This document shows, piece by piece, positions 40,069 to 54,965 of a stretch of 64,000 nucleotides of DNA. The notes beneath the pieces were generated by a model that saw only the letters and a program-made list of their open reading frames with translations, had not been told where the DNA came from and did not search any database. This DNA comes from Methylomonas albis (GTDB lineage Bacteria > Pseudomonadota > Gammaproteobacteria > Methylococcales > Methylomonadaceae): contig NZ_JACXSS010000001.1 in assembly GCF_014850955.1 (NCBI RefSeq), positions 1,674,001-1,738,000 of the forward strand, in the 5' to 3' direction. Within the stretch, counting starts at the first letter, position 1, and every line of letters begins with the position of its first letter. The position numbers and the translations under genes are program-made.

Positions 40069-41013
40069 TCAAATGCCGTTCAACAAGGACAACTCTGCCG
40101 GATGCGGCTGCATGTAATAGGAGTTGTCGATAAAGGCGTCAGGTTCTCTGCGGAAATGATGGCGGAGTAGGGTCAGCGGCACGATCAGCGGCAACAAACC
40201 GATCCGATAATTTTCGATGGTTTCTACCAGTTCCTGTTTGTCGTCGCTGTCCAGTTTGTGCTTTAAATAGCCCTGGATGTGTTGCAAGACATTGACATGG
40301 TTGCCGCGAGTGGCGACGATTTTCAGACAAGTCATCAAGGCGCCAATATAGGCAGCGCCGGTATTTTCAATATCAGCGTTGGTGACGCCGGCAATAATCC
40401 GCCCCAGCTCACGCGCCTGGTTTTGTTCGTGACTCATCGCGATCAATTTATGCCGGCTGTGAAAGCTGATCAAACCATGCGGGGTCAAACCTTGTCCGCA
40501 TAAATCCTGCCAGCGGCGCATCACAAACACGCGCTGGATAAAGTTTTCGCGCAGGCCGGGATCGCCCAATCGGCCCTCTTCTTCCACCGGCAGGCTGGGG
40601 AAAGTGCGCTGTAAATAGTCCGCAAAAATACCGATGCCTTGCCGCGCGGGGATGTCGTTCTTGTAGATTTTGACGCGGGTCATGCCGCAGCTGGGTGAGT
40701 CTTTTTTCAGAATATATCCACACAAGCCACCCAGCCAATCGTGTTGCCGGGCCGAGGCCTGTTCCAATCGTTCCGTCACGTCCAGGCTGTGATCCTTCAC
40801 GCCGACGCAACGGATGGTGCCGTCGGCGGTTTCCCGCAATTGCACGCAAGGACGCGGTACGCCCAAGCCGGCCTCGACTTCCGGGCAGAAAGGTTTAAAG
40901 TCGAAATACTGGCCCAGCGTGCGCTCAATGTAGCTGTGATACTTGTGCGCACCGTCGTAGCGCACTTCGTGGCCTAACAGGCAGGCGCTGATGCCGACCG
41001 CAATTTTCTGCAT
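40069..41013 (-). CDS. YbgA-like protein (DUF523-DUF1722)
   Basis: 314 residues. The N-terminal DUF523 has GISACLLGHEVRYDGAHK, FCPEVEAGLGVPR and the Cys motif KKDSPSCGM. The C-terminal DUF1722 (YbgA) has HGLISFHSRHKLIAMSH. The biochemical role is unknown, but this two-domain protein recurs beside photolyase genes, and E. coli ybgA adjoins phrB. It is the last gene of the ten-gene minus-strand run, 13 bp after the lipocalin gene. Confidence 0.88.
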   Translation of the reverse strand: MQKIAVGISACLLGHEVRYDGAHKYHSYIERTLGQYFDFKPFCPEVEAGLGVPRPCVQLRETADGTIRCVGVKDHSLDVTERLEQASARQHDWLGGLCGYILKKDSPSCGMTRVKIYKNDIPARQGIGIFADYLQRTFPSLPVEEEGRLGDPGLRENFIQRVFVMRRWQDLCGQGLTPHGLISFHSRHKLIAMSHEQNQARELGRIIAGVTNADIENTGAAYIGALMTCLKIVATRGNHVNVLQHIQGYLKHKLDSDDKQELVETIENYRIGLLPLIVPLTLLRHHFRREPDAFIDNSYYMQPHPAELSLLNGI

Positions 41014-41026
41014 GCTTAATCCTTGG

Positions 41027-41545
41027 TTATTGCTTGGGGTGTTGGTCGAAAATCAGTTTTTCGGTGGCAAAGCCGAGCGCTTTGGCTTGTTGAATCAGAT
41101 CTTGTTGGATGCTCGGTGCCAGCTCCGGGCTGCGGGCCAGTATCCATAAATAATCGCGATCCGGGCCGGCGATCATCACATACCGGTAAGCGATTTTATC
41201 CAGCGCGATGATGTTATAGGCGCCGTAAAACGGCCCGAAGAAAGAGACTTTCAGGCGGCCGATGTCCGGTTTGTCGATAGAATAAGCTTTGCCTTCGGCG
41301 ATTTTTCGTTGGCCTTGCTCGGCGTCGTAGCCGCTGTTTAATACCTTAACGCCGCCGTCATCGCGCAGGCTGTATTCGGCGCTGATGTCGGTCAGGCCAC
41401 GCTCGAAGCTGTGATCCAGGTGGGCGATTTCGTACCAGGTGCCCAGATAGCGTTCCAATTCGAAGCCGTCTATCACTTTTACACCTTCCGGGATGCCTGT
41501 GCAGGCGCATAGCAAGCTTAATAGCAGTATCGGTAGATAACGCAT
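41027..41545 (-). CDS. blc: Bacterial lipocalin (Blc family)
   Basis: 172 residues. The signal peptide ends LLSLLCACTG, a lipobox. The lipocalin SCR1 motif ERYLGTWYEIAHLDHSFERG is followed by YSLRDDGGVKVLNSGY, FFGPFYGAYNIIAL and DRDYLWILARSP. Blc proteins sit in the outer membrane, bind lysophospholipid or fatty acids, and are induced by envelope stress. It lies 3 bp after phrB and 13 bp before the ybgA-like gene, so it is clearly cotranscribed. Confidence 0.92.
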   Translation of the reverse strand: MRYLPILLLSLLCACTGIPEGVKVIDGFELERYLGTWYEIAHLDHSFERGLTDISAEYSLRDDGGVKVLNSGYDAEQGQRKIAEGKAYSIDKPDIGRLKVSFFGPFYGAYNIIALDKIAYRYVMIAGPDRDYLWILARSPELAPSIQQDLIQQAKALGFATEKLIFDQHPKQ

Positions 41546-41548
41546 GGT

Positions 41549-42940
41549 TTACTCCGCTGTAGCCGCGGTATTGCCTAAGGCCTTGAATTGGGCTTTGATC
41601 GATTGGCTTTGTACCGCATGGTCGACGCACGGTGCGGGATAGTCGCCGGCTTGCGGATACTTTTCCCATTTATGAATCACCGCTGCCGGGAAGCGTTGCA
41701 ACTCCGGAATCCAGGTCTTGATATACAGGCATTGCGGATCGAATTTTTTCTGCTGTAGCCAGGGATTGAAGATCCGGAAATACGGTTGCGCGTCGCAGCC
41801 GGTGGAGGCTGCCCATTGCCAGTTGCCGTTGTTGACGCAAGGGTCGTAATCCAGCAAACGTTGCGCGAAATAACGTTCGCCCCAGCGCCAGGACACATGT
41901 AAATCCTTGACCAAAAACGAGGCAACGATCATGCGTAAACGATTATGCATCCAGCCGGTTTGATTCAATTCGCGCATGGCTGCGTCCACAATCGGGAAGC
42001 CGGTTTGGCCGTTGGTCCAGGCCCAGAAATCGGTTTGGCCGTTGCGCCAGAGCATGCCGTCGTAACGTCTATCAAAAGCGTGACCGAACACATGCGGAAA
42101 ATGAAAGCCGATATGGGTGAAAAAGTCTCGCCAATATAACTGGCGCAGCAAGGGATGGTCGGGATCGAGTTCAGCTTGGATGCTATGAAAAACTTCTCGT
42201 ACCGAGCAGCAGCCAAATTTCAAATAGGCCGACAGTTGGCTGGTGGCAGCCATGGCCGGAAAATCGCGGACCGCGAGGTAGTTTTTGCAGTTGCCAATGA
42301 TGGCTAATCGCGCCAAGGCTGCTTGTCGGCCACCGGGCAACGCGTTTTGGTGCGGCTGTTGGAGTTGCTGTAGCAGCTCGGGTTTGTGGCCGACATAGGC
42401 TGTTGCCAATAGTTTACCGGCCGCCAGCCGTTGCGGTGCTGGCACCGGCAGGAGTTGGGCTTGCCGATGAAACGCGGTGAACACTTGATAAGGTTTGCCG
42501 TTACTTTTTAAACCTTGTTCCGGTTCGGTCAGCAGTAAATCGGCTTGGCTGTGAAAAGCCAGATGCAGTGTTTCGCACTGTTTTCGTAGCTCGGCGTCGC
42601 GCTGCCGGCTGAACGGGCTGTAATCGCGATTGACAAACACCGCTTCGATACCGAAATCCTGTTTCAGTGGCTCGACAAGATGTGCAGACTGACCGTTGAA
42701 AATATACAGCAGGGCACCTTGTTGTTGCAGCTGCTGCTGCAAATCAGCCAGTGATTCCAGCATGAATTGCAAGCCGGGTGTGCTTTGATAAGGATGAGAT
42801 TGTATTTGTCGCGGATCGAAAATAAAGCAAGCCAAAACCTGAGTTGATTCACGTAAGGCCGCGTTCAGGCCGCTGTTGTCCTCCAGACGTAAATCACGGC
42901 GGAAAATAAACAGCGAAGTTTTGTAGCGTTTTTTTGCCAT
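41549..42940 (-). CDS. phrB: Deoxyribodipyrimidine photolyase
   Basis: 463 residues, normal for class I photolyases. The N-terminal antenna-binding alpha/beta domain begins LFIFRRDLRLEDNSGL. The FAD-binding domain carries YWRDFFTHIG, TGFPIVDAAMRELNQTGWMH followed by NRLRM, and CVNNGNWQWAASTGCDAQP, with the DNA-contact and Trp electron-transfer residues expected of a CPD photolyase. It repairs UV dimers with blue light, fitting the surrounding light-sensor genes. It lies 7 bp from the previous gene. Confidence 0.95.
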   Translation of the reverse strand: MAKKRYKTSLFIFRRDLRLEDNSGLNAALRESTQVLACFIFDPRQIQSHPYQSTPGLQFMLESLADLQQQLQQQGALLYIFNGQSAHLVEPLKQDFGIEAVFVNRDYSPFSRQRDAELRKQCETLHLAFHSQADLLLTEPEQGLKSNGKPYQVFTAFHRQAQLLPVPAPQRLAAGKLLATAYVGHKPELLQQLQQPHQNALPGGRQAALARLAIIGNCKNYLAVRDFPAMAATSQLSAYLKFGCCSVREVFHSIQAELDPDHPLLRQLYWRDFFTHIGFHFPHVFGHAFDRRYDGMLWRNGQTDFWAWTNGQTGFPIVDAAMRELNQTGWMHNRLRMIVASFLVKDLHVSWRWGERYFAQRLLDYDPCVNNGNWQWAASTGCDAQPYFRIFNPWLQQKKFDPQCLYIKTWIPELQRFPAAVIHKWEKYPQAGDYPAPCVDHAVQSQSIKAQFKALGNTAATAE

Positions 42941-42947
42941 CAGCTAG

Positions 42948-43457
42948 TTAGCAGTCGCCCCAATGAATAATCATTTGCTGGCAATTAAACAGGATGTTGG
43001 GGTAATACTGATAAATCACCCAGCGCAACAGCAAGTCGAAATACGCCGCTACTGTCATCATGCGCGCCACTGCAGCCCAAATTCTGCTAGCGCCTTTATC
43101 CGAACAGCGCCACACGGCGCCGGTCCAATAAATCAGCGGCATTGCCATGATGATATGGATGGTAACCCAGCTAGCGACCGTGAAGTTACCTTCGTTAATC
43201 CGGTAGTCGATGAAAAACAATACCGCGTTGTAGAGGATAAAAAATGGATAGAAGGCGTCTTTTAAGCGCAGATAACCTAGCCAGCTCCATTGCAGATAAA
43301 AATACAGCGTGGCCGGTGTGCGTTCTTCCCATTCCTGGGCCGGTGAAGGGGTTAAATAAAATATCAGGATGCCCAGGGCAAGGGCGACCAACAGCGCTTC
43401 GTACCAGGTGATAAACGAAGTAAAGGCAAATAGTAAGGAAAGACTGTCGATCAACAT
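42948..43457 (-). CDS. Membrane protein of unknown function in the photolyase run
   Basis: 169 residues with about four hydrophobic helices (WYEALLVALALGILIFYL; FILYNAVLFFIDY; IHIIMAMPLIYWTGAVW; VAAYFDLLLRWVIYQYY). Cys residues occur at WRCSDKG, NCQQM and the C-terminal GDC. I do not recognise the family. It is tightly packed (19 bp after the epimerase gene, 7 bp before phrB), so coexpression with the repair genes is very likely. Confidence 0.75.
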   Translation of the reverse strand: MLIDSLSLLFAFTSFITWYEALLVALALGILIFYLTPSPAQEWEERTPATLYFYLQWSWLGYLRLKDAFYPFFILYNAVLFFIDYRINEGNFTVASWVTIHIIMAMPLIYWTGAVWRCSDKGASRIWAAVARMMTVAAYFDLLLRWVIYQYYPNILFNCQQMIIHWGDC

Positions 43458-43476
43458 AAATGTGCCCGTTGTTTAT

Positions 43477-44388
43477 CTAAGGTTTATCCAGAATATCGCG
43501 CAAGGCGGTATCCAACAGTGAGTATTTAAATGCAAAGCCTTGTGCCAGTAAACGTTCCGGCAGCACGCGTTGGCTACCCAAGACCAGCGCCGCCATTTCG
43601 CCCAGCAATAATTTAAGAACCACTTCCGGCATGGGCAGCAACAGCGGTCTATTTAGTACGCTGGCCAAGCTGGCGCTGAATTGTTGGTTGCTGGCCGGGT
43701 TGGGTGCTGTGGCGTTGTATGGGCCGCGCATTTCCGGCTGTTCTAGCATCGCTTCGACAATAGCCAGCCAGTCGTGCAAATGTACCCAGGACATCCATTG
43801 CGACCCCTTACCCAAGCGTCCGCCCAATCCTAAACGAAACGGCAGCAACATGCGTTTCAGTATGCCACCATTATCACCCAGCACCAAGCCGGTGCGTATC
43901 AGGCAGACCCGACTGCCGAATTTTTCCGCTTGCAAGGCTGCGGATTCCCAATCGGCGCAAAGCTGTTGAGAAAAGTCGGCAACGCTCGCGCTATTTTCAG
44001 TCAGGAACTTGTCGCCTTGATCGCCGTAAACGCCGATAGCCGAGCCGCTTACCAGGACGGGGGCTGGCTGCGAGGAGGAGGCTATCCAGGCCACCAATTG
44101 TTCGGTCAGTTTAATCCGGCTATCACGCAACAACTGCTTGCGTGCCTCGGTCCAGCGTTGATCGAAAATGCCTGCGCCAGCCAGATTGACTACCGCTTTG
44201 AAAGTGCCGGCATCGGGTAAATCGGCAACTGAACTTATCGCTTGTACGCTGTTGCCGAAAGTAGCAACTACTTTTTCGGCGCTACGGCTCAGCACCGTCA
44301 CAGAATAATTTTTTTGTATTAATTGTTTGGCAAGTGCGCTACCTAGAAAGCCGGTGCCACCGCTAATTAAAATCGAATTTGTATTCAT
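43477..44388 (-). CDS. TIGR01777-family NAD-dependent epimerase (YfcH-like)
   Basis: 303 residues. The extended-SDR N-terminus ILISGGTGFLGSALAKQL is followed by VNLAGAGIFDQRWTEARKQL, VSGSAIGVYGDQGDK and LIRTGLVLGDNGGILKRML. The C-terminal DUF1731 part has NRPLLLPMPEVVLKLLLGEM. Reaction unknown. Homologues often accompany photolyase and lipocalin genes in light- or stress-inducible clusters. It is in the same run, 61 bp after msrQ. Confidence 0.9.
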   Translation of the reverse strand: MNTNSILISGGTGFLGSALAKQLIQKNYSVTVLSRSAEKVVATFGNSVQAISSVADLPDAGTFKAVVNLAGAGIFDQRWTEARKQLLRDSRIKLTEQLVAWIASSSQPAPVLVSGSAIGVYGDQGDKFLTENSASVADFSQQLCADWESAALQAEKFGSRVCLIRTGLVLGDNGGILKRMLLPFRLGLGGRLGKGSQWMSWVHLHDWLAIVEAMLEQPEMRGPYNATAPNPASNQQFSASLASVLNRPLLLPMPEVVLKLLLGEMAALVLGSQRVLPERLLAQGFAFKYSLLDTALRDILDKP

Positions 44389-44449
44389 GAGATTGTGCTC
44401 GTGGAATTAAAAGGCTAAATCCAACCATCAATTCAGTGCTTGGCGGGTG

Positions 44450-45091
44450 TTAATCGGATTCTGTATCGATGGCGGCTCGGCCTTTGGGAATCATCATTTG
44501 GCGTAACTGCCTATTTTTAAACCAGATCACAGCCCGAAAACCCAATAGCATAAATATGATAAGCAAGTAGAACAAAGGTTCTGCCAGATTGCCTTTAAGC
44601 TGCCAGAAATAATGAATCATTGCCGAACCGGCAGCTATATAAATAAAACGGTGCAGTTTTTTCCAGCTTTTGCCCAAGCGCTTCTTCGCCGCTTTAGAGG
44701 AAGTAATACCTAATGAAAAAATGATAATAAAGGCAAGTAGTCCAAACCAGATATACGAGCTTTCGATAATATCGATGGCTATCATGCGCCAGGCAAAAAC
44801 CTGATCAACCAAAAGATAGGCCAGTACATGCAGGCTGGCGTAAAAAAAAGCATATAAGCCGAATAATTGTCGATAGTCGGTCATGCCGCGCCATTTTGTA
44901 ACGGTCTGTACCGGGGTGATAGCCAGGGTTAGCCATAAAAATCGCAGGGCCCAATCGCCTAAACGAATATGTAAGGCTTGCATTTGATTCGAGCCCAGGT
45001 TATCGAAGGCAATATCGAAAAATATCCAAAGCAGCGGTATAAGACAAACCGCGATGGTTAAGGACCGCAAATTATTAATTTGCATAATCAT
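44450..45091 (-). CDS. msrQ: Heme-binding quinone-linked subunit MsrQ (YedZ)
   Basis: 213 residues, six membrane helices of the ferric-reductase-like domain. Candidate heme ligands are in FFYASLHVLAYLL, KKLHRFIYIAAGSAMIHYFW. The family motif TGxWALRFL-like stretch appears as GDWALRFLWLTLAITPV. It passes electrons from quinol to MsrP. The start overlaps the msrP stop by one base (TAATG), so the two are translationally coupled. Confidence 0.92.
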   Translation of the reverse strand: MIMQINNLRSLTIAVCLIPLLWIFFDIAFDNLGSNQMQALHIRLGDWALRFLWLTLAITPVQTVTKWRGMTDYRQLFGLYAFFYASLHVLAYLLVDQVFAWRMIAIDIIESSYIWFGLLAFIIIFSLGITSSKAAKKRLGKSWKKLHRFIYIAAGSAMIHYFWQLKGNLAEPLFYLLIIFMLLGFRAVIWFKNRQLRQMMIPKGRAAIDTESD

Positions 45092-46047
45092 TAGAAAAAA
45101 TGCCTCAAATCCATATCACGATACATGTGCGCGACTTGTTCGGCATAACCGTTAAATAATTCGGTTTGCCGGCGTGGGGTGAAAAAGCCGCTGCCCAATT
45201 GTCGCTCGCTATTTTGGCTCCAACGCGGATGCGGCACATTCGGGTTGACGTTGGCGTAAAAGCCGTATTCGTTGGGGGCAAACTTGTTCCAACTGCTAAT
45301 CGGCGGCCTTTTTAAGAGTTCTATTTTGACCACGGCTTTGATGCTTTTAAAACCGTATTTCCAGGGCACCACCAAACGCAGAGGAGCGCCGTTTTGCTTC
45401 GGCAAAATATCGCCGTACATACCGGTCGCCAGTATCGTCAAAGGATGCATGGCTTCGTCGATGCGCAAGCCCTCGACATAGGGCCATTCCAGCATCGCGT
45501 TATTGCCTTGTTTGGGCATGGTGTCGGGTTGATAAACAGAAGTCAGTTTTACGAACTTGGCGGTCGACAAAGGTTGAGCGGTTTTCAGCCAATCGCCTAG
45601 CGAGAAGCCCACCCAGGGTACCACCATGGACCACGCTTCGACGCACCGGAAACGATAGATATATTCCTGTATTGTTTGCTGGCGCAGAATATCTTCCAGC
45701 TGATAAATGCCGGGTTTTTCCACTTCGCCGGCTATCTCGACAGACCAGGGATCGATGCGCAGGTTTTGAGCCAGGCTGCTTGGGTCTTCCTTGTTAAAGG
45801 CAAATTCGTAGTAATTATTGTAATTTTTTACTTGGTCGGCCGGGGTGATGTCCAAGGCATTCGCCGAGAACCGGTTTTGGGGCACGGCGCTCCAAATGGG
45901 TTTTGCGGGTTCGGCCCAACTGTTACGAATGCTGGTCCCGTTCAGCATCATGGCGGCCAGTGCTTTAATGATGGTGCGACGCTGCTGGAAAACCAAAGGA
46001 TCGGTAATTTCACTGCCGGGAATATTTTTTATTGTTTTTATAATCAT
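45091..46047 (-). CDS. msrP: Periplasmic methionine sulfoxide reductase MsrP (YedY)
   Basis: 318 residues. The N-terminus has a twin-arginine signal (QQRRTIIKALAAM), so it is exported folded with its molybdopterin cofactor. The oxidoreductase core has FRCVEAWSMVVPWVGF, whose Cys is the Mo ligand, then PLRLVVPWKYGFKSIK. With MsrQ it repairs oxidised methionines in envelope proteins. It lies 35 bp after the hydroxylase gene, inside the photolyase run, consistent with an oxidative or light-stress role. Confidence 0.94.
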   Translation of the reverse strand: MIIKTIKNIPGSEITDPLVFQQRRTIIKALAAMMLNGTSIRNSWAEPAKPIWSAVPQNRFSANALDITPADQVKNYNNYYEFAFNKEDPSSLAQNLRIDPWSVEIAGEVEKPGIYQLEDILRQQTIQEYIYRFRCVEAWSMVVPWVGFSLGDWLKTAQPLSTAKFVKLTSVYQPDTMPKQGNNAMLEWPYVEGLRIDEAMHPLTILATGMYGDILPKQNGAPLRLVVPWKYGFKSIKAVVKIELLKRPPISSWNKFAPNEYGFYANVNPNVPHPRWSQNSERQLGSGFFTPRRQTELFNGYAEQVAHMYRDMDLRHFF

Positions 46048-46082
46048 GGCTTAATTACCGGCAACTTATGCAAAGAGTTTCA

Positions 46083-46907
46083 TCACTTTTTACCTTTTGG
46101 AATCCAGCCGAATAATTGTCGAATCTTACGCTCGGTAATAAATGCCAAAGAAAATAGTTGAATAAAATTATCGGCCTCAATCAAATCTAATCCTATCTGA
46201 GCGGGTACCAGTTCTTTTCGCGTACCAAATATCCGATCCCAAACAGCTAAGACAATTCCGTAATTACTGTCATGTTCCGAACGCAAAGTGGAATGATGGG
46301 TGCGATGCAGGGAAGGGGTAATAATCACTTGGGAAATAGCGGCTTCGTTGGGGATGCGAATATTGCTGTGATGGAAAAATATAAAAAATAACTCGATAAT
46401 TTCTATGGAAAGCACTAAATAAGCATTTACGCCAATGACTACTACGAATACACATTTATAAATTATTTCCAGGAGTAAATCGAAAACATGAAAGCGAAAG
46501 CCAGTGGAAACGTTAAAACATTTATCGCTGTGGTGAACTTTATGGAATCGCCATAAATATTCAGACTTGTGACTGGCGTAATGCCAAACAAAAATAGCCA
46601 AGTCGAAAAAAGCGAAAGCCAATAACCATTTAAGCGGACCATTATTCAGGCCGCTTAATAAACCGAAGCTGGCGAATTGCTGGGCAACCAGAAATAGGGA
46701 AGAGGCCCTAAGCACGGTTAAAATTAAGTTATTGACTAAAAATGCGGTGGTGTTGGTAACGAAAGACTCTTTGTAAGTCTTGGCCGGAAATTGCCGATAG
46801 GGTTTAGTTTTCTCGATGATTAGCAACAGCACGAAAGCTAATATCGCCAGACCGAATAAGGCTTCGTTAAAAAACAGGCCATCGTTGGCGTTTGCAGTTG
46901 TATTCAT
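46083..46907 (-). CDS. Fatty acid hydroxylase / sterol desaturase family protein
   Basis: 274 residues, about five membrane helices. The di-iron histidine boxes are intact: HYASH, HKVHHSD, FHHSNI and LHRTHHS. The substrate is a membrane lipid of unknown type. AGAGGAT precedes the ATG at 46907. Its place in a photolyase/LOV run suggests membrane-lipid modification under light stress, which is inference. Confidence 0.88.
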   Translation of the reverse strand: MNTTANANDGLFFNEALFGLAILAFVLLLIIEKTKPYRQFPAKTYKESFVTNTTAFLVNNLILTVLRASSLFLVAQQFASFGLLSGLNNGPLKWLLAFAFFDLAIFVWHYASHKSEYLWRFHKVHHSDKCFNVSTGFRFHVFDLLLEIIYKCVFVVVIGVNAYLVLSIEIIELFFIFFHHSNIRIPNEAAISQVIITPSLHRTHHSTLRSEHDSNYGIVLAVWDRIFGTRKELVPAQIGLDLIEADNFIQLFSLAFITERKIRQLFGWIPKGKK

Positions 46908-46943
46908 GGATATCCTCTAAGGTATGTATTTATCGCACGTAAT

Positions 46944-47399
46944 TTAACTTCCTTGAATCGCATCTAATAGGCTGGTTAACTCCTTAATTTCATTGTTGGC
47001 ATTTACCTGTTCCGTAATGTCATATTGCACACCTAGATAATAAATTACTCTATTCTTTTTATCTAATAATGGGGTTATCTTTAAACGATTATGAAACAAT
47101 GTGCCGTCTTTTTTATAATTTCTTAATGTTACTTCAACCGATTCATGTTTCTTCATGGCTTCGATAATTTTAAAACGTGCCTCTTGTTCTCTATCTTCGC
47201 CTTGTAAAAAACGGCAGTTATGACCAATTATCTCGTCATGAGCATATCCGGTTAAACGTTCGAATGCTTTATTGGCGTATATAATAGGTGCGTCTTCAAG
47301 GTCAGGGTCAGCCAGCGTGACGCCGTTTACGCATTCATCCAAAATAGCGGAAAGTACTTGCGGAATAAGACCGCTATCTTTTTCAACAATAAAAGCCAT
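46944..47399 (-). CDS. Short LOV-domain photoreceptor
   Basis: 151 residues consisting almost only of one PAS/LOV core. GHNCRFLQG has the photoactive Cys62 that forms the flavin adduct. The flavin-contact Asn (TLFHNRLKI) and Gln (YYLGVQYDITEQ) are in place. A ~20-residue C-terminal helix (NNEIKELTSLLDAIQGS) follows and no effector domain, as in the short LOV proteins of Pseudomonas putida. It probably signals by dimer rearrangement. A good SD (GGAG) precedes it. Second gene of the run. Confidence 0.92.
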   Translation of the reverse strand: MAFIVEKDSGLIPQVLSAILDECVNGVTLADPDLEDAPIIYANKAFERLTGYAHDEIIGHNCRFLQGEDREQEARFKIIEAMKKHESVEVTLRNYKKDGTLFHNRLKITPLLDKKNRVIYYLGVQYDITEQVNANNEIKELTSLLDAIQGS

Positions 47400-47441
47400 G
47401 GTTAAACTCCGGGTTTTATAATAATTATGAGTTTGTATATG

Positions 47442-47927
47442 CTAGTTGCATTCTACGAGAACTAAATTCTTGATGTTTTCGACGGTGTTTTCTGCGCCGT
47501 CTTCGATGGCGCAACGAATTAATTTCTCAAAAGGCCGCATAAATACTTCAAGCTCTAAAAATTCAAAACGAAAAATCAAGCGTGTGGGCTGACTTTCTGC
47601 TTGAGTGGCTTCAAGAAAATAACTGTGCTTATAAGGTGCGGTGACTCCTTGAAAGATAAGTTTTGATTGGGGGTGATAGTCGGTAATTTCAAAAACGGAC
47701 TCTATTTCGCCGTTATTGTCTTTACGAATTTGCTTGGCTTTGGCGCCGACAAAAACTTTTTTGCCGTCGAGCGGTTCAAAATCGATTACTTCTACTGCCC
47801 ATTTCGGGTAGTTTTCAAAAAAATTTTCACCAATATAATGGAAAACATCGTCAACCCGTTTATCAATATCGATGCATGCCTCGCCGGCAATGGGTTTGTG
47901 TGAGTCGAATGGAAATTTGATTTGCAT
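47442..47927 (-). CDS. SRPBCC (START/Bet v1-like) family protein
   Basis: 161 residues with the Bet v1-like pattern: a first strand at IDIDKRVDDVFHYI, central ESVFEITDYHPQSKLIFQG, and a long C-terminal helix from RPFEKLIRCAIEDGAENTVE. Such domains bind hydrophobic ligands; the ligand is unknown. AAAGGA precedes the ATG. It is the first gene of the ten-gene minus-strand run (gaps of -1 to 61 bp down to 40069). Confidence 0.75.
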   Translation of the reverse strand: MQIKFPFDSHKPIAGEACIDIDKRVDDVFHYIGENFFENYPKWAVEVIDFEPLDGKKVFVGAKAKQIRKDNNGEIESVFEITDYHPQSKLIFQGVTAPYKHSYFLEATQAESQPTRLIFRFEFLELEVFMRPFEKLIRCAIEDGAENTVENIKNLVLVECN

Positions 47928-47965
47928 TTTATCCTTTCCCCTCGCCGAGCTTGCTGCTCAGCGTA

Positions 47966-47996
47966 ATTATAATTTTTCTGGATACGTGAAGCGTAT
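47966..47996 (-). promoter_or_regulatory. Candidate promoter of the ten-gene photolyase run
   Basis: On the minus strand a perfect -10 TATAAT lies at 47971-47966, about 40 bases before the first ATG. The matching -35 position has no TTGACA; instead it coincides with an inverted repeat ATACG-TGAAG-CGTAT (47982-47996, plus strand), suggesting activator control or a different sigma factor. Confidence 0.45.
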
Positions 47997-48227
47997 AAAA
48001 CCGTATTTAAATTAACAGAAACAAATCGTTATTCGGCCGAGATAGGCCTTGTAATGTGTTGCTCAGTATACCTCGACGATTTTGGTGTAGAGATAATTTT
48101 ATTGAATACTGGCTTGCAAAAGGAATATAAACTTGCTTTATTAGGGCTGTAAGCAAGGCCGTTTGAGGAAAAACAAAATAGCTAACAGTCAAATTGTAGA
48201 CTGTTTGTGTCTAAGAACTGTAAAACA
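47997..48227. other. Intergenic region without supported gene
   Basis: AT-rich, about 230 bp. A 61-codon minus-strand frame (48007-48192) has no SD or recognisable product and is not called. Confidence 0.4.
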
Positions 48228-48647
48228 CTAGTTTTCCTGGTGCCGCATGGCCGCGCAGCCGCCATATAGTAGATGTGATAATCCGGAGTATATAAATAAC
48301 TTGCTATAGTTCTCGTCGATTTCAATTTGATTGATCGAGCAGTAAAACTCTAACGAACCGATTAATAGCAAAAGAAAAATGCCTAATGCGGCCAATGCTT
48401 CAGGACTGTTACTTAATTTATAAAAACTGTAAGCCGCGATTTGTATCAAGCATAAATAAAACATCATTAAACGCATGTTATTTGCTAATGGGCCGTACAA
48501 GTCGCTATTATCTTCAAAAAACAGGGTATTGCCGAATATAGTGGCAGCACCGCTGATCAATAATAGAATCACCGCCACATTCAAATTAATCTGCAACAAC
48601 AATTGCAGTAAGTTCAGGGTTTTTGTAGTTATCGATTGAGTATGCAT
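48228..48647 (-). CDS. Small membrane protein of unknown function
   Basis: 139 residues from the ATG at 48647 (MHTQSITTK); the longer frame to 48677 would run into the ftsH terminator. About four hydrophobic segments (INLNVAVILLLISGAATIF; MRLMMFYLCLIQIAAYSFY; ALGIFLLLLIGSLEFYC; KLFIYSGLSHLLYGG). No family recognised. It lies between the ftsH terminator and the photolyase run, on the same strand. Confidence 0.6.
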   Translation of the reverse strand: MHTQSITTKTLNLLQLLLQINLNVAVILLLISGAATIFGNTLFFEDNSDLYGPLANNMRLMMFYLCLIQIAAYSFYKLSNSPEALAALGIFLLLLIGSLEFYCSINQIEIDENYSKLFIYSGLSHLLYGGCAAMRHQEN

Positions 48648-48659
48648 ATTGCTACCGCT

Positions 48660-48696
48660 AAAAAAGATACCCTCCAAGAGTACTGCGTTTGGAGGG
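48660..48696 (-). terminator. Strong Rho-independent terminator after ftsH
   Basis: On the minus strand, ACCCTCCAA and TTGGAGGGT are perfect 9-bp arms (48696-48688 and 48676-48668) with an 11-base loop, followed by ATC and T5. It closes the sigma-hflK-hflC-ftsH unit 18 bp past the ftsH stop. Confidence 0.85.
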
Positions 48697-48713
48697 TATA
48701 TAGAGGAGGACTT

Positions 48714-50618
<1,905 letters not shown>

Positions 50619-50635
50619 GATAGCTATCTCCTAAC

Positions 50636-51502
50636 TCACTTTTCGCTGGAGAAGTATTTGAAAAAATCGGAGTTTGGTTTTAACACCAAAGTATCCTGAG
50701 TTTTTTCAAATGACGTTTGGTATGCCTGTAAGCTGCGGTAGAACGCATAGAACTCCGGATTTTTACCGTAGCTTTTCGCGTAAATCTCCGCCGATTGCGC
50801 ATCGCCGCGACCGCGTATGTTCTCTGAGTCGCGTTGGGCATTGGCCACTATCACGTGTTTTTGCTTGTCGGCTTCCGCACTGATTTGCTCAGCACTTTCC
50901 GCGCCTTGCGAACGAAACTCGCGGGCTACACGCTCCCGTTCGGCGCGCATCCGTTGATAAACCGAGCTGCTTACTTCCGGCGGCAAGTCGATACGTTTCA
51001 CGCGAATATCGATTAGCTCTATACCGAATTTTTCCGCGGTGGGCGCCAATTTAGCCAACAAGGTTTGTCTCAGTTCGTTACGATCTTCGGAGATCAATTG
51101 TTTGATGGTCCGCACGCCGAATTCGCTACGCATCGCGTCTTTCATGATTTGGTCGAGGCGTAGATTGGCTTGAAACTCGTCGCCGCCGACCGTGGTGTAA
51201 AAGAGACCCACATCACCGATTCGCCATTTGACGAATGAGTCAACAATTACGTTCTTCTTCTCGGAGGTAAGAAAACGCTCGGATTTGGCATCCAAGGTCA
51301 GCACACGCGCATCAAATGTGCTGACGTTATTGATGATAGGGGTCTTGAAATGTAGTCCGGGAGTGTAATCGGATGTCACCATCTCTCCGAGACGAAACAG
51401 AATGGCTTTTTCGTTTTCTTTCACGTAAAAAACCGACATATAGGCCAGTACGCACAGAGTCAAACCGGCCGGAATTAAAACTTGGGTGGTTTTGCTGCTC
51501 AT
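50636..51502 (-). CDS. hflC: FtsH regulator HflC
   Basis: 288 residues: an N-terminal membrane anchor (LIPAGLTLCVLAYMSVFYV), an SPFH/Band 7 domain (ILFRLGEMVTSDYTPGLHFK) and a coiled coil (MRAERERVAREFRSQGAESA). It assembles with HflK into the periplasmic cage around FtsH. The start overlaps the hflK stop (ATGA), and 17 bp separate it from ftsH. Confidence 0.93.
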   Translation of the reverse strand: MSSKTTQVLIPAGLTLCVLAYMSVFYVKENEKAILFRLGEMVTSDYTPGLHFKTPIINNVSTFDARVLTLDAKSERFLTSEKKNVIVDSFVKWRIGDVGLFYTTVGGDEFQANLRLDQIMKDAMRSEFGVRTIKQLISEDRNELRQTLLAKLAPTAEKFGIELIDIRVKRIDLPPEVSSSVYQRMRAERERVAREFRSQGAESAEQISAEADKQKHVIVANAQRDSENIRGRGDAQSAEIYAKSYGKNPEFYAFYRSLQAYQTSFEKTQDTLVLKPNSDFFKYFSSEK

Positions 51503-52662
51503 GGTTTGCTCCTGCTAGGACGTAATTCATTACCGGCGGTTTTGCGAGCGCCGTTTTTGTCGCTGCTGTGTTGCTCGGCACTAAGTTCCGGTTCCGAGTT
51601 GCCGGTTGCAGGTTGCGTATGTTGCGTAACGGTTTGCGGCAAAGGCATGTACATCATGGGGTTGGACTGATCGTCGTTCAGCATGATTTTATTAGTGCTG
51701 CTGTACAGTTTTTCCTTGGCTTCCAGGTATAAACGTTTACGGGTAATGGCAGGGTTTTTTTCGTATTCCACCAGCAGCTGATCGAAACGCTCGGTTTCAC
51801 CTTTGGCTTTGGCGACCTTCTCGGCTTCGTAAGCTTCCGCTTCTTGAATAATTCGCGATGCCGCACCGCGCGCTTTAGGAATGACTTCGTTGCTGTAGGC
51901 TTCGGCTTCGTTGATCAAGCGTTGCTTGTCTTCTCTAGCCCGAATCGCATCCTCGAAAGCGCCTTGTACTTCTTCCGGTGGCTGCGCGTCTTGCAAGTTG
52001 ACACTGGCAATGCTGATGCCGGCTTTGTAGCCGTCCATCGCTTCCTGGGTTTGCTCTTTTATCTCCGCGACGATTTGGCTGCGGCCTTCGGTTAACACGA
52101 AATCCATGCTATTGCGGCCGATTACCGCGCGTTCCACGCTTTCAGTCAGTTGCTTCAGCGTGTTTTCATTGTTTTTGACGTTAAACAAATAGTCGCGAGC
52201 ATTATTGATCTGATACTGCACGGCCAGACGCACGGTAATGATGTTTTCGTCGGCGGTCAGCATCAGCGATTCCTGCGGAATAACTGACGATTTGTTAACC
52301 CGGCTGGTGTCGGTGTAACCGACTTCGATAAACCGTTGTTGCTCGACGTTGACATTGGCGACGCTTTCGATAGGTGCCGGAATATGCCAATGCGGGCCTG
52401 GCAAAGTGGTTTCCGAATACGCACCGAAGCGGCTGACCACGCCTCGGTTACCCTGGTCCACGATGTAAACACCGCTGGCCAGCCAGACTACGGTCAAGGT
52501 GCCGCCCACGGCCGCCGCTATATTGGTTAAAGAAAACATGCTTTTATGATCGTTAAAGAAGTCGCCTGCTTTAGATGAGACGTGCTTCCACTGCTTATCC
52601 ATTTCCAACTTCCAGTCGGGCTGCGGCGTTTGCTTGCTGGTGTTTTGTTTTTCTGATGACAT
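51499..52662 (-). CDS. hflK: FtsH regulator HflK
   Basis: 387 residues from the ATG at 52662, which has AGGAGT 4 bases upstream; a GTG at 52668 would overlap that SD. After a polar N-terminus lies one membrane helix (IAAAVGGTLTVVWLASGVYI), an SPFH domain (GNRGVVSRFGAYSETTLPGP) and long coiled-coil helices (AFEDAIRAREDKQRLINEAE). Partner of HflC in the FtsH holocomplex. It starts 50 bp after the sigma gene. Confidence 0.93.
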   Translation of the reverse strand: MSSEKQNTSKQTPQPDWKLEMDKQWKHVSSKAGDFFNDHKSMFSLTNIAAAVGGTLTVVWLASGVYIVDQGNRGVVSRFGAYSETTLPGPHWHIPAPIESVANVNVEQQRFIEVGYTDTSRVNKSSVIPQESLMLTADENIITVRLAVQYQINNARDYLFNVKNNENTLKQLTESVERAVIGRNSMDFVLTEGRSQIVAEIKEQTQEAMDGYKAGISIASVNLQDAQPPEEVQGAFEDAIRAREDKQRLINEAEAYSNEVIPKARGAASRIIQEAEAYEAEKVAKAKGETERFDQLLVEYEKNPAITRKRLYLEAKEKLYSSTNKIMLNDDQSNPMMYMPLPQTVTQHTQPATGNSEPELSAEQHSSDKNGARKTAGNELRPSRSKP

Positions 52663-52712
52663 AATCACTCCTCTTGTAGTGTTAGCCTGACCTGGGTCAA
52701 TGATTGTTATTG

Positions 52713-53969
52713 TTAGCCATCCTTGGGTTCGAGAAATAGCATAAGGTCAAAGCCGAATTGTTGTTTCAATTTTTTTAAAGCTTCATTTTGAATTTGCCTA
52801 ACTCTCTCCCGAGTAACATGCAGCTGATCCGCTACTGCCTGCAACGTCATCTCCGTGTGATCGCGCAAACCGAAACGCATGGTCAAAATCGCCGCCTGTT
52901 TTTCAGGTAGCGAAGCAACTGCTTTGTCGACATATTGAGCGAGGTCCTGATCAATTAGTTCATCGAGTGGCAGGCTGAATTGATGCTGCTGCATTTTTGC
53001 CATCAATTCCAGGTTATCGTCGTCACCTATCGCCGCGTCCAGGGAATGGGTGGCCTGATAGTAACTGCTGATGGTTTTAATCTCTTGCTCGGATAAATCG
53101 CAGGCCAGTTTTAATTCGGCTAAGCTCGGCCAGCGCTCGTATTTAAGGTAACAACTGCGCATGGCCTCGAATACGGTGGCGGCTTTTTCGGCCAGAGCGA
53201 CCGGTAAACGCACAATTTTTTCTTGTTTGACTATCAGTCGCGAGATGGCTTGTCTGATCCAATAAATGGCATAAGTGGAAAAACAGATGCCGCGATCCGG
53301 ATCGAATCTATCCACCGCTTTAATTAAGCCTACCAAGCCTTCCTGCATCAAATCCTCAAAGCTCAAGTTACTGGTTTTGTACTTGTGAGCGACGAAAGCC
53401 ACCAAGCCGGTGTTGGCGGAAATCATTTGCTGACGCAAGGTTTTTAAATCGCGCTTGGCTTTGCCCAGGCGTTTTTTGAAGTCTGCGCTGTCCTCGGTGT
53501 CTGCGGTCAATATGCCGTCTGCTTGTGCCGCGCTGTCCAGTAAAAATACCGGTAATAAATGTAAGCTGTACAACAAGCGATTGACCGAGCGAGCGACTAA
53601 GGATTGCTGCGCAAATTCCGAACCCATAAGTTGTACAACATTCTCAGCTTGTACAACTTTGTCCTGTCCGTTATTCTCACCGGAGATGCCCTGATTCTGT
53701 CTGGCCGCGGCTTGGTTATTAACTAGAAATTGCAGCAGTCGTTTGTAGTCTTCGGAGCTCTTGGCGACGATCAGATCCGAGCAGTCCGCACCCGAATTGA
53801 GATCGTGTAAGAATCTATTAATTATCAAAGCGTTAGTTTGTTTGTTCTCCAGCAATAACGCTAAGAGACTTTGCCTGGCCTGTTCAACTTGAACGGCAAG
53901 TGAGTTAGGTTGGGATTCTGTTACCGAATCCATCTCGCTATCAATTGGCAATGCGGCTAAGTTGGACAT
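52713..53969 (-). CDS. Divergent sigma-70 family factor with long N-terminal extension
   Basis: 418 residues from the ATG at 53969. Region 2 is clear (NLSFEDLMQEGLVGLIKAVD, then FSTYAIYWIRQAISR), region 3 follows, and region 4 has LPEKQAAILTMRFGLRDHTE and VTRERVRQIQNEALKKLKQ. The core resembles group 2 (RpoS/RpoD-like) factors, yet the first ~190 residues have no region 1.2 I recognise and region 2.1 is altered (NTGLVAFVAHKYKT). It is transcribed with hflK-hflC-ftsH and divergent from litR, so it probably directs the local stress regulon. Confidence 0.82.
   Translation of the reverse strand: MSNLAALPIDSEMDSVTESQPNSLAVQVEQARQSLLALLLENKQTNALIINRFLHDLNSGADCSDLIVAKSSEDYKRLLQFLVNNQAAARQNQGISGENNGQDKVVQAENVVQLMGSEFAQQSLVARSVNRLLYSLHLLPVFLLDSAAQADGILTADTEDSADFKKRLGKAKRDLKTLRQQMISANTGLVAFVAHKYKTSNLSFEDLMQEGLVGLIKAVDRFDPDRGICFSTYAIYWIRQAISRLIVKQEKIVRLPVALAEKAATVFEAMRSCYLKYERWPSLAELKLACDLSEQEIKTISSYYQATHSLDAAIGDDDNLELMAKMQQHQFSLPLDELIDQDLAQYVDKAVASLPEKQAAILTMRFGLRDHTEMTLQAVADQLHVTRERVRQIQNEALKKLKQQFGFDLMLFLEPKDG
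53631..53656. promoter_or_regulatory. Pair of TTGTACAA palindromes inside the sigma gene
   Basis: TTGTACAA occurs at 53631-53638 and again at 53649-53656, 18 bp apart, with a partial CTGTACAA copy about 70 bp away. GTAC-centred sites recall MerR/CarH-type operators, but these lie within coding sequence, about 330 bp from the litR-sigma intergenic gap. Confidence 0.3.
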
Positions 53970-54059
53970 AATCAATTCACTTGGTTATTTAAGTTGTTGG
54001 CAAATAACTTACTAGAATGTAGAATGTTTGTCAAAGTATTTTCTATACAAAAGTTGAAC

Positions 54060-54965
54060 ATGTACTCAATTAAAGCGATTACCTCCTTAACCGGATTAAC
54101 AGCGGAAACACTAAGAGCCTGGGAACGTCGCTACGCCTGCATCATGCCGGAGCGAAACAGTACGGGGCGGCGTTTCTATTCACAACAGGATTTGGAAAAG
54201 TTGACGCTGTTGGTCAATCTCACCCGCAAGGGCCATCCCATCGGCAAGCTGGCCGCCTTGGACAGCCAGCAACTGCAGGATTTTCAGAAACAAGTCGCTG
54301 TACAACCGGCAACAGAATCCTCGCCGTTGCTGGCGCAGATCATCGATTCTTTAAAGCATTACCGAATCGAACGCTGCGAACAATTGTTGAAGAAGGCGCT
54401 GATTGCTGCCGAGCCGTTGGACTACGCCAGAGACATTTTGTTGCCTGCCTTGCAATCAGTGGGTGAACTTTGGCATGACGGCAAATTGAATATCGCTCAG
54501 GAACACATGTTTTCCAGCTGTATCAAGCGGATTGTGTTGAGCATGGTCAACAACCTGCATCATCATTCTAAAAATAATCCGGGCATGTTGTTCGCCACGC
54601 CGAGTGGCGATCCGCATGAGTTTGGGATTTTGGTGAGCTGCTTGATTGCCGCCAATCAGGGCTATAACTGTTACTATCTGGGCGCGGACCTGCCTGCCAA
54701 GGATATAGTCGAGGCCTGCCAACACTTGAAGCCGGACGTAATTGTGATGGGTTTGGTCAAGACTCCGCCGGAGCAGGTCACCATCGACGAATTACAGCTG
54801 ATAGTCGACGCGGTCAACGGCGAAGCAACCAAGGTTTGGTTGGGCGGCAGCGGGGCCTATTTTTATTACCAGCAATTACAAAAGGGTTTAATAAGCAATT
54901 GCGAATTGATCACCGATATCGATCATTTCAATGCCAAGGCCCAGCAACAGCAATTATCCAACTGA
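54060..54965 (+). CDS. litR: B12-dependent photoreceptor/repressor LitR (CarH-type)
   Basis: 301 residues from the ATG at 54060 (MYSIKAITSLTGLTAETLRA); a TTG frame start at 53994 adds unlikely sequence. The MerR HTH has AWERRY and STGRRFYS. The helical bundle keeps the adenosyl-capping set W138-x9-E148-H149 (ELWHDGKLNIAQEHMF). The B12 Rossmann domain has the base-off ligand His186 in SGDPHEFG. All CarH light-sensing residues are therefore present, with nearly the spacing of Thermus CarH. In the dark such proteins repress; light splits AdoCbl and releases DNA. It is divergent from the sigma-hflKC-ftsH operon. Confidence 0.92.
   Translation: MYSIKAITSLTGLTAETLRAWERRYACIMPERNSTGRRFYSQQDLEKLTLLVNLTRKGHPIGKLAALDSQQLQDFQKQVAVQPATESSPLLAQIIDSLKHYRIERCEQLLKKALIAAEPLDYARDILLPALQSVGELWHDGKLNIAQEHMFSSCIKRIVLSMVNNLHHHSKNNPGMLFATPSGDPHEFGILVSCLIAANQGYNCYYLGADLPAKDIVEACQHLKPDVIVMGLVKTPPEQVTIDELQLIVDAVNGEATKVWLGGSGAYFYYQQLQKGLISNCELITDIDHFNAKAQQQQLSN

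What the first reader, a model, noticed from the sequence alone, without database searches (positions are those of the whole stretch)
40069..54965. Candidate light/oxidative-stress regulon: LitR, sigma factor, HflKC-FtsH and a ten-gene repair run with a LOV photoreceptor
Seen: an intact CarH-type litR is divergent from a sigma-hflK-hflC-ftsH unit with its own terminator. A ten-gene run on the same strand follows: SRPBCC, LOV, di-iron hydroxylase, msrP, msrQ, TIGR01777, membrane protein, phrB, blc, ybgA-like, with gaps of -1 to 61 bp. Known: LitR/CarH control photolyase-containing gene sets in several bacteria. Inference: here the same light input also drives membrane proteolysis (FtsH/HflKC) and periplasmic Met repair, a wider response than usually described, with two chemically different photosensors (AdoCbl and flavin).
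Basis: partly seen in the sequence, partly recalled or inferred. Interest (0 to 1): 0.82.

Follow-up and report, generated by a model that had tools for sequence, protein, structure and literature searches.

The report
Light-switch locus with hidden operator
In methane-eating Methylomonas bacteria a vitamin-B12 light-sensor gene sits opposite, and very probably controls, an operon for a sigma factor and a spare membrane-protein-clearing machine, through a DNA switch partly hidden inside the sigma gene; repair genes follow behind.

Summary
The arrangement is real and conserved: 41 of 43 named methanotroph LitR loci have the sigma gene divergent from litR, against 0 of 37 more distant LitR loci. 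LitR keeps both CarH cobalamin motifs. HflK-HflC-FtsH is a second set beside housekeeping copies.

(1) A perfect LitR operator, TGTACA-N12-TGTACA, lies inside the sigma gene: the only exact copy in the 5.4-Mb genome, exact in 33 of 36 litR-linked sigma genes with codon choice showing DNA-level selection, absent from five litR-less ones. (2) The sigma promoter carries 11-bp CarH-type repeats, one such promoter per genome in 31 of 37 genus genomes. (3) The "own terminator" after ftsH is a conserved RNA element (UCCUCCUCUAU plus hairpin), once in each of 84 of 201 order genomes; elsewhere it precedes orf149 without ftsH.

Most likely dark LitR represses sigma-hflKC-ftsH at two places and light releases it. 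Whether the ten-gene repair run follows by read-through, through the sigma, or independently is open. No expression data. Reader partly supported.

The parts
54060..54965 (+). litR, CarH-type MerR + B12-binding regulator
   Evidence: Pfam MerR_1, B12-binding_2, B12-binding; CarH structures E 2e-27; Wx9EH and axial His invariant in 14 of 14 aligned
54029..54060 (-). O1: 11-bp repeat TGTTCA-N5-TGTATA plus -35 box TTGACA of the sigma promoter, touching the litR start codon
   Evidence: only match of this pattern in the genome; conserved in relatives
54006..54011 (-). proposed -10 box TAAGTT of the sigma promoter
   Evidence: the -10 varies among relatives
53632..53655 (.). O2: TGTACA-N12-TGTACA inside the sigma gene
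52713..53975 (-). sigma-70 family factor (ATG 53969)
   Evidence: Pfam Sigma70_r2, r4 over cut-off, r3 below it; best structures RpoS/RpoD
51499..52668 (-). hflK (second copy)
   Evidence: TIGR01933 over cut-off; 60% to the copy in L164
50636..51502 (-). hflC (second copy)
   Evidence: TIGR01932 over cut-off; 61% to the copy in L164
48714..50618 (-). ftsH (one of three full copies)
   Evidence: TIGR01241 over cut-off; 64% to L001, 76% to L003
48661..48712 (-). conserved RNA element: TCCTCCTCTAT + terminator-like hairpin
48228..48647 (-). orf149, conserved small protein of four long helices, probably membrane
   Evidence: no family over cut-off
47442..47927 (-). SRPBCC-type protein
   Evidence: PF10604
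46944..47399 (-). short LOV protein
   Evidence: PAS_9; structures 5luv and 3sw1 among the best; sequence GHNCRFLQG
46083..46907 (-). fatty-acid-hydroxylase-type di-iron enzyme
   Evidence: PF04116
45091..46047 (-). msrP
   Evidence: NF003767 over cut-off
44450..45091 (-). msrQ
   Evidence: NF003831 over cut-off
43477..44388 (-). TIGR01777-type epimerase (DUF1731)
   Evidence: PF01370, PF08338
42948..43457 (-). membrane protein of 169 aa
   Evidence: no Pfam family; conserved in relatives
41549..42940 (-). phrB photolyase
   Evidence: PF00875, PF03441
41027..41545 (-). blc lipocalin
   Evidence: PF08212
40069..41013 (-). RudS-type (DUF523/2-thiouracil desulfurase + DUF1722)
   Evidence: PF04463, PF08349

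Best explanation
A light switch with one main target. In the dark, AdoCbl-loaded LitR (a tetramer in studied CarH proteins) binds the 11-bp repeats before the sigma -35 box, which reach the litR start codon, and also the operator inside the sigma gene, so sigma-hflK-hflC-ftsH is off; the inner site acts by roadblock, looping or both. Light breaks the Co-C bond, LitR lets go, and the operon is transcribed. The cell gets an alternative sigma factor, a second HflKC-FtsH complex to clear photodamaged membrane proteins, and RNA ending at the UCCUCCUCUAU-hairpin element. Transcripts that pass the element express orf149 and, by read-through or through the sigma, the repair run. Shown by sequence: gene order, LitR motifs, sites and their conservation. 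Inferred: the light response, repression, roadblock or looping, and the targets of the sigma, FtsH and the RNA.
For: LitR motifs; single exact operator in the genome, exact in 32 of 35 litR-linked loci and 0 of 5 litR-less ones; codon test 33 of 36; one 11-bp-repeat promoter per genome in 31 of 37 genus genomes; sigma divergent in 41 of 43 named loci; L122 keeps the operator and promoter array in front of hflK though sigma is lost; the operator lies in a low-confidence linker of the sigma model.
Against: No expression or binding data. The operator consensus comes from class II LitR, not from a B12-type one. The O1-like promoter repeats match the window's -35 context but the -10 varies. No helical phasing between promoter and O2. 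Three litR-linked loci of 35 lack an exact O2 (L046, L056, L078). In other genera similar sites occur far from litR, and G194 has them without a LitR hit. LitR scores 125 bits against the 400-bit NCBIfam CarH cut-off.
Confidence: 0.62

Rival explanations
1. The repair run is not part of the LitR unit: it has its own promoter in the 300-bp gap before the SRPBCC gene, answers to another light or ROS signal (perhaps with LOV), and is a neighbour by clustering. Compatible with the LitR-sigma part of the main reading.
For: No LitR site before the run in the window and only one in the genome; a 300-bp gap with a conserved block next to the SRPBCC start in the close clade; run missing or partial at several litR-sigma loci.
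Against: In L047-L050 and L054 the run follows orf149 by about 60-80 bp, leaving little room for a promoter; all 16 genes together in 19 of 40 loci.
Confidence: 0.35
2. LitR here reads cobalamin status or oxidative state rather than light, and the locus is a membrane-stress operon.
For: Nothing here tests light; FtsH-HflKC and MsrPQ serve other stresses (general knowledge); litR-less sigma-hflK-hflC-ftsH modules exist (L062, L063, L066, L073).
Against: Photolyase, LOV and RudS genes close by; CarH-type motifs incl. Wx9EH, which cap the light-labile adenosyl group (PMC8156234, passages).
Confidence: 0.15
3. O2 is a protein motif (VQx4VQ) of the sigma factor, not an operator.
For: Always the same reading frame; V and Q nearly or fully invariant in 16 aligned sigmas; VQ..VK stays in L062, L063, L066.
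Against: GTA (16% of Val codons) with a preceding T (21%) at both half-sites in 33 of 36 genes, Gln wobble base free; only spacing 12 is enriched among exact pairs (32 against 0-4); the site survives where the sigma core is gone (L122).
Confidence: 0.05
4. The RNA element is not a trans-acting RNA but a cis attenuator (conditional terminator) of orf149 and what follows.
For: orf149 follows on the same strand in 17 of 17 of the 20 loci from other genera where it was recognised; start codon 49-75 nt after the element start in 21 of 22 measured; no room for a promoter between.
Against: The 5' motif stays while the stem changes, and pairing with the 3' arm does not hold in the GAAGGG clade, so an alternative fold is not evident; weak ribosome sites of orf149 do not covary (by eye).
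Confidence: 0.45

Closest known systems
CarH / class I LitR photoswitch (Thermus, Myxococcus, Bacillus megaterium)
   Same: MerR HTH + cobalamin domain with Wx9EH and axial His; 11-bp repeat sites at a promoter; divergent target
   Different: Known targets are mostly carotenoid genes; here a group-2-like sigma with hflKC-ftsH, and an extra site inside the target gene. PMC8156234 (passages) names no looping or roadblock
Class II LitR with short LOV (PplR of Pseudomonas putida, PmlR2/PmSB-LOV of P. mendocina)
   Same: Operator consensus T(G/A)TACA-N12-TGTA(C/T)A; short LOV and photolyase-type genes near by (PMC9758184, passages)
   Different: Class II lacks the full B12 domain; no hflKC-ftsH or sigma-70 group factor in the passages read; LOV here is not adjacent to litR
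RpoE-ChrR singlet-oxygen regulon (Rhodobacter, Vibrio cholerae)
   Same: A sigma factor drives photolyase and lipid/repair genes under photo-oxidative stress (PMC7074977, PMC5241685, passages)
   Different: ECF sigma with anti-sigma ChrR; here a sigma-70-type factor next to a photoreceptor repressor, no anti-sigma seen
CcsR1-4 sRNAs of Rhodobacter sphaeroides
   Same: 3'-UTR-derived RNAs of a photo-oxidative stress operon (PMC8307010, passages); CCUCC-type motif (recalled)
   Different: One copy, other hairpin, no evidence of a processed RNA; no Rfam match
lac operon auxiliary operator O2 in lacZ (recalled)
   Same: A second operator about 400 bp downstream inside the first gene, tetrameric repressor
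   Different: Unrelated repressor; looping not shown here

Membership tests
CarH / class I LitR | MerR-type HTH plus cobalamin-binding domains | tested here: met
   Pfam
CarH / class I LitR | Wx9EH motif and (D/E)xH axial histidine | tested here: met
   W138, E148, H149, H186 invariant in 14 of 14; aligned to CarH
CarH / class I LitR | NCBIfam CarH equivalog cut-off (NF052513, 400 bits) | tested here: not met
   125.4 bits; so filed as LitR/CarH family, not as the CarH equivalog
CarH / class I LitR | 11-bp direct repeats at the target promoter | tested here: met
   TGTTCA-N5-TGTATA
CarH / class I LitR | AdoCbl-dependent dark binding, loss in light | not testable with these tools
   needs purified protein
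sigma-70 group 2 (RpoS-like) | Sigma regions 2, 3 and 4 | tested here: met
   regions 2 and 4 over cut-off, region 3 below its Pfam cut-off; RpoS/RpoD structures cover residues about 160-405
sigma-70 group 2 (RpoS-like) | NCBIfam RpoS cut-off (TIGR02394, 378.7 bits) | tested here: not met
   204.4 bits; not filed as RpoS
FtsH protease | TIGR01241 cut-off; HEXXH and Walker A | tested here: met
   833.6 bits against 600; HEAGH and GPPGTGKT in the translation
Short LOV photoreceptor | LOV core with the flavin cysteine and no effector domain | tested here: met
   NCRFLQG in 151 aa; best structures incl. 5luv and 3sw1; that these are Pseudomonas short LOVs is recalled
RudS | 2-thiouracil desulfurase (TudS) domain fused to DUF1722 | tested here: met
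   PF04463 + PF08349
CcsR-type anti-Shine-Dalgarno sRNA | match to a described Rfam family | tested here: not met
   no family near its gathering score in 47900-48900
CcsR-type anti-Shine-Dalgarno sRNA | processed stable 3' RNA acting in trans | not testable with these tools
   needs RNA data

The most novel reading that the evidence does not exclude
A B12 photoreceptor with a single main genomic target runs a three-layer light response in methanotrophs: it represses from two sites, one buried in frame in the sigma gene it controls; light releases a dedicated sigma and a spare FtsH-HflKC machine for photodamaged, perhaps methane-oxidising, membranes; and the transcript ends in a new light-made RNA with a strongly conserved anti-Shine-Dalgarno-like seed that tunes translation.
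Probability: 0.3. Interest if true: 0.86.

Novelty: new variant of a known kind. Interest (0 to 1): 0.72.

Why it matters
It would link a CarH/LitR photoreceptor to membrane proteolysis, a link for which the papers listed gave no example (held open-access library only). FtsH clears photodamaged D1 in photosystem II repair (PMC9020784, passages), and in Methylocystis SC2 an ftsH lies beside pmoC and was proposed to screen methane monooxygenase (PMC3794950, passage); a light-switched FtsH-HflKC in non-photosynthetic methanotrophs would be a parallel. An operator kept by DNA-level selection inside a protein linker is an unusually clean case, and the RNA element is a new testable RNA. Cultured carriers named include Methylomonas sp. 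LW13 and Methylotuvimicrobium buryatense 5G.

Tried and rejected
Helical phasing of promoter-to-O2 distance: none seen. A shared sigma-dependent promoter before the SRPBCC gene: only a clade-specific block. O2 as protein motif: rejected on codon use. A shorter sigma starting after O2: not favoured, because the N-terminal frame is open and alignable across genera; Foldseek aligns most of the chain to sigma-70, but with TM-scores of only 0.22-0.40 in the 50 rows shown and a model of mean pLDDT 67.6, so this is weak. The element as ftsH's own terminator: rejected, since in 20 loci of other genera no ftsH was found next upstream. Pairing of UCCUCC with the hairpin's 3' arm: fits GGAGGG, not GAAGGG. 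Fold of orf149: no PDB match at E<=0.001. LitR-type sites beside litR in other genera: none of the patterns tried in L219-L240. Text search for CCUCCUCCC sRNAs: no paper held. Rfam hits to mir-1824 and SNORND104 are far below gathering score, taken as chance. Rows dropped: the 38 sequences of A2 were picked by the motif TCCTT?CCTCTAT and de-duplicated, so invariance of the motif within A2 is partly by construction.
Full report
What is there. The window lies in a Methylomonas genome (G000, 5.4 Mb, 2 contigs); the closest named LitR loci are M. methanica (two strains), M. fluvii, Methylomonas sp. LW13 and sp. WSC-7 at 93-95% identity (the genome's own record may be left out there). LitR's shared start is ATG 54060. 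A gene was missed between ftsH and the ten-gene run: orf149 (48228-48647), modelled as four long helices (mean pLDDT 86.5), with no NCBIfam match and only scattered weak Pfam matches among 23 members.

Conservation. A sigma search of 201 genomes of the order hit all of them, as sigma factors are universal; the close family is what matters. I fetched 40 of the listed places and mapped the window's proteins on them by tblastn: litR in 35, hflK and hflC in 36, ftsH in 39, orf149 in 33, LOV in 21, phrB in 23, and all 16 genes in 19 of 40; several loci are cut by contig ends or the 20-kb limit. The one genome-contig scan kept 80 of 171 LitR relatives. In L080-L122 (Methylomonas, Methylobacter, Methylomicrobium, Methylotuvimicrobium, Methylicorpusculum, Methyloprofundus and MAGs) a sigma lies divergent from litR in 41 of 43; in L123-L159 (42% identity or less) in 0 of 37. 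The named and unnamed sets overlap and must not be added.

A second membrane protease. The genome has three full-length ftsH. L001 has genes on its two sides that I read as rlmE and glmM, and L164 has hflK-hflC followed by genes I read as hisZ and purA (names by recall from the sequences), the usual housekeeping settings. The window set is an extra FtsH-HflKC: FtsH 64% to L001 and 76% to L003, HflK 60% and HflC 61% to L164. Sigma-hflK-hflC-ftsH also exists without litR within the fetched 20 kb in L062, L063, L066 and L073.

LitR and O2. Wx9EH and the axial His are invariant in 14 of 14 aligned LitR; the two motifs define CarH homologues (PMC8156234, passages). The published class II operator is T(G/A)TACA-N12-TGTA(C/T)A (PMC9758184, passages). 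The window's only exact copy (53632-53655) lies inside the sigma gene and is the only one in the genome. In the 40 loci, exact TGTACA pairs occur 32 times at spacing 12 and 0-4 times at each of 17 other spacings (13 bp: 4; 20 bp: 2; the rest 0 or 1); with one mismatch spacing 20 (25) and 18 (12) also rise, which I take for half-sites of the promoter array without having checked each. Exact O2 is in 32 of 35 litR-linked loci (not L046, L056, L078) and 0 of 5 litR-less ones (Fisher p 8.5e-5, not corrected for kinship). The consensus occurs in 33 of 37 genus genomes, once in 30, two or three times in G076, G152 and G167; where I held the locus one of the sites is the sigma gene, the others were not looked at. 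Both half-sites read Val-Gln in frame: the preceding T, GTA and CA are fixed, the Gln wobble base is free. Elsewhere in these genes GTA is 16% of Val codons and T 21% of third bases, so an exact double site is expected in about 0.1% of such sequences; 33 of 36 have it. O2 covers residues 105-113, within a stretch (92-123) of pLDDT below 50. In L122 (a MAG) the sigma is replaced by a short ORF with VQ..VQ, yet O2 and the promoter array stand before hflK-hflC-ftsH. In the named set 35 of the 41 sigma-bearing loci have exact O2; L100, L114, L116 and L118 have one mismatch, L115 two, L112 none recognisable.

Promoter. Between sigma and litR relatives share a half-site pair 11 bp apart, TGTT(C/T)A-N5-TGTA(C/T)A in most, then TTGACA; the -10 is TAAGTT in the window's clade but TAACTT, TAATTT, TAACGT or TATCTT elsewhere. 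The repeat plus -35 pattern is found once per genome in 31 of 37 genus genomes, with no hit of the reversed control; with TAANTT added, in 16 of 37. So LitR probably has this as its one main target; degenerate sites elsewhere are not excluded. The -35 to O2 distance is 366-401 bp in the genus, 280-291 in other genera and 568 in L077, without clean helical phasing, so I do not prefer looping to roadblock.

RNA element. After ftsH comes TCCTCCTCTAT, a hairpin and a T-run. In the window and L039-L122 it is found in 65 of 85 loci; of the other 20, five are litR-less, one is a sub-piece of the window, nine are cut short or lack the region, and five (L076, L096, L119, L120, L122) have a hairpin with the motif changed or missing (the sorting of the 20 is mine from the printed sequences). 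In 38 distinct copies, 4 of 6 stem pairs show changes on both sides (the alignment is imperfect in the most distant rows). A covariance model finds one copy in each of 84 of 201 genomes, 27 of 28 in the genus counting own. I fetched 20 of the 57 hits outside the genus, choosing ones not tied to the sigma: none has ftsH next upstream, and an orf149 relative follows on the same strand in 17 of 20 (not found in L200, L212, L214). The orf149 start is 49-75 nt after the element start in 21 of 22 measured, 138 in L055; 23 were tried, and L058, not among them, has a longer gap. In 12 of the 20 loci TTGACn-N16-18-TAAGTT lies within 400 nt upstream, and all 12 have half-sites within one mismatch of TGTACA exactly 11 bp apart before it; 0 of 1000 shuffled regions have the promoter. 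The -10 in that pattern was read off these sequences first, so this is description, not a blind test. It suggests that sigma-hflKC-ftsH sits inside what is elsewhere a promoter-element-orf149 unit. A LitR is found in 22 of 25 such genomes (not G194, G170, G048), away from these sites and without the patterns beside it; G194 has perfect repeats without a LitR hit, so the regulator there is unproven.

Mechanism. Dark repression by LitR of sigma-hflKC-ftsH, relieved by light, is the best-supported reading (0.62). E. coli FtsH degrades sigma-32 (PMC9020784, passage), so feedback on this sigma is possible. FtsH substrates are unknown; methane monooxygenase membranes are a guess helped by ftsH beside pmoC in Methylocystis SC2 (PMC3794950, passage). 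The element may be a trans-acting RNA, as CcsR RNAs are 3'-UTR-derived in Rhodobacter (PMC8307010, passages), or an attenuator of orf149. The run may be read through where it follows orf149 by about 60-80 bp (L047-L050, L054); in the window a 300-bp gap leaves this open. RudS often lies in light-responsive operons (PMC11417400, passages), so that part is not new.

Literature. Searches for LitR+FtsH (31 papers, 15 listed, several matching 'litre'), hflK+ftsH+sigma factor+light+photolyase (none), Methylomonas light terms (964, 20 listed), operator terms (12 listed, none with 'intragenic operator') and methanotroph terms (12 listed) showed no paper on this locus. Only the held open-access library was searched and only passages of the cited papers were read.

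Noticed in passing
54049-54065: The window lacks one base just before the litR ATG that its seven close relatives L039-L045 have, so AGTACA to TGTATA is 11 instead of 12 apart.
   Followed up: no
L062, L063, L066, L073: Paralogous sigma-hflK-hflC-ftsH modules without litR, O2 or the RNA element, in genomes that also carry the litR-linked one.
   Followed up: partly
L122:9400-10795: Sigma reduced to a short ORF, operator and promoter array kept in front of hflK-hflC-ftsH; a MAG, so assembly should be checked.
   Followed up: partly
L070, L075, L076, L101, L114, L119: Loci where hflKC is missing or reduced between sigma and ftsH; in L070 ftsH matches only over a short stretch.
   Followed up: no
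G194 (L207): Perfect 11-bp TGTACA repeats before the element, but no LitR found in that genome.
   Followed up: partly
42948-47927: The run looks modular: SRPBCC-LOV-hydroxylase-msrPQ is absent as a block in L046, while the SDR-to-RudS block stays.
   Followed up: no
37615-38844: Intact Mutator-family transposase (PF00872) about 1.2 kb beyond the end of the run.
   Followed up: no
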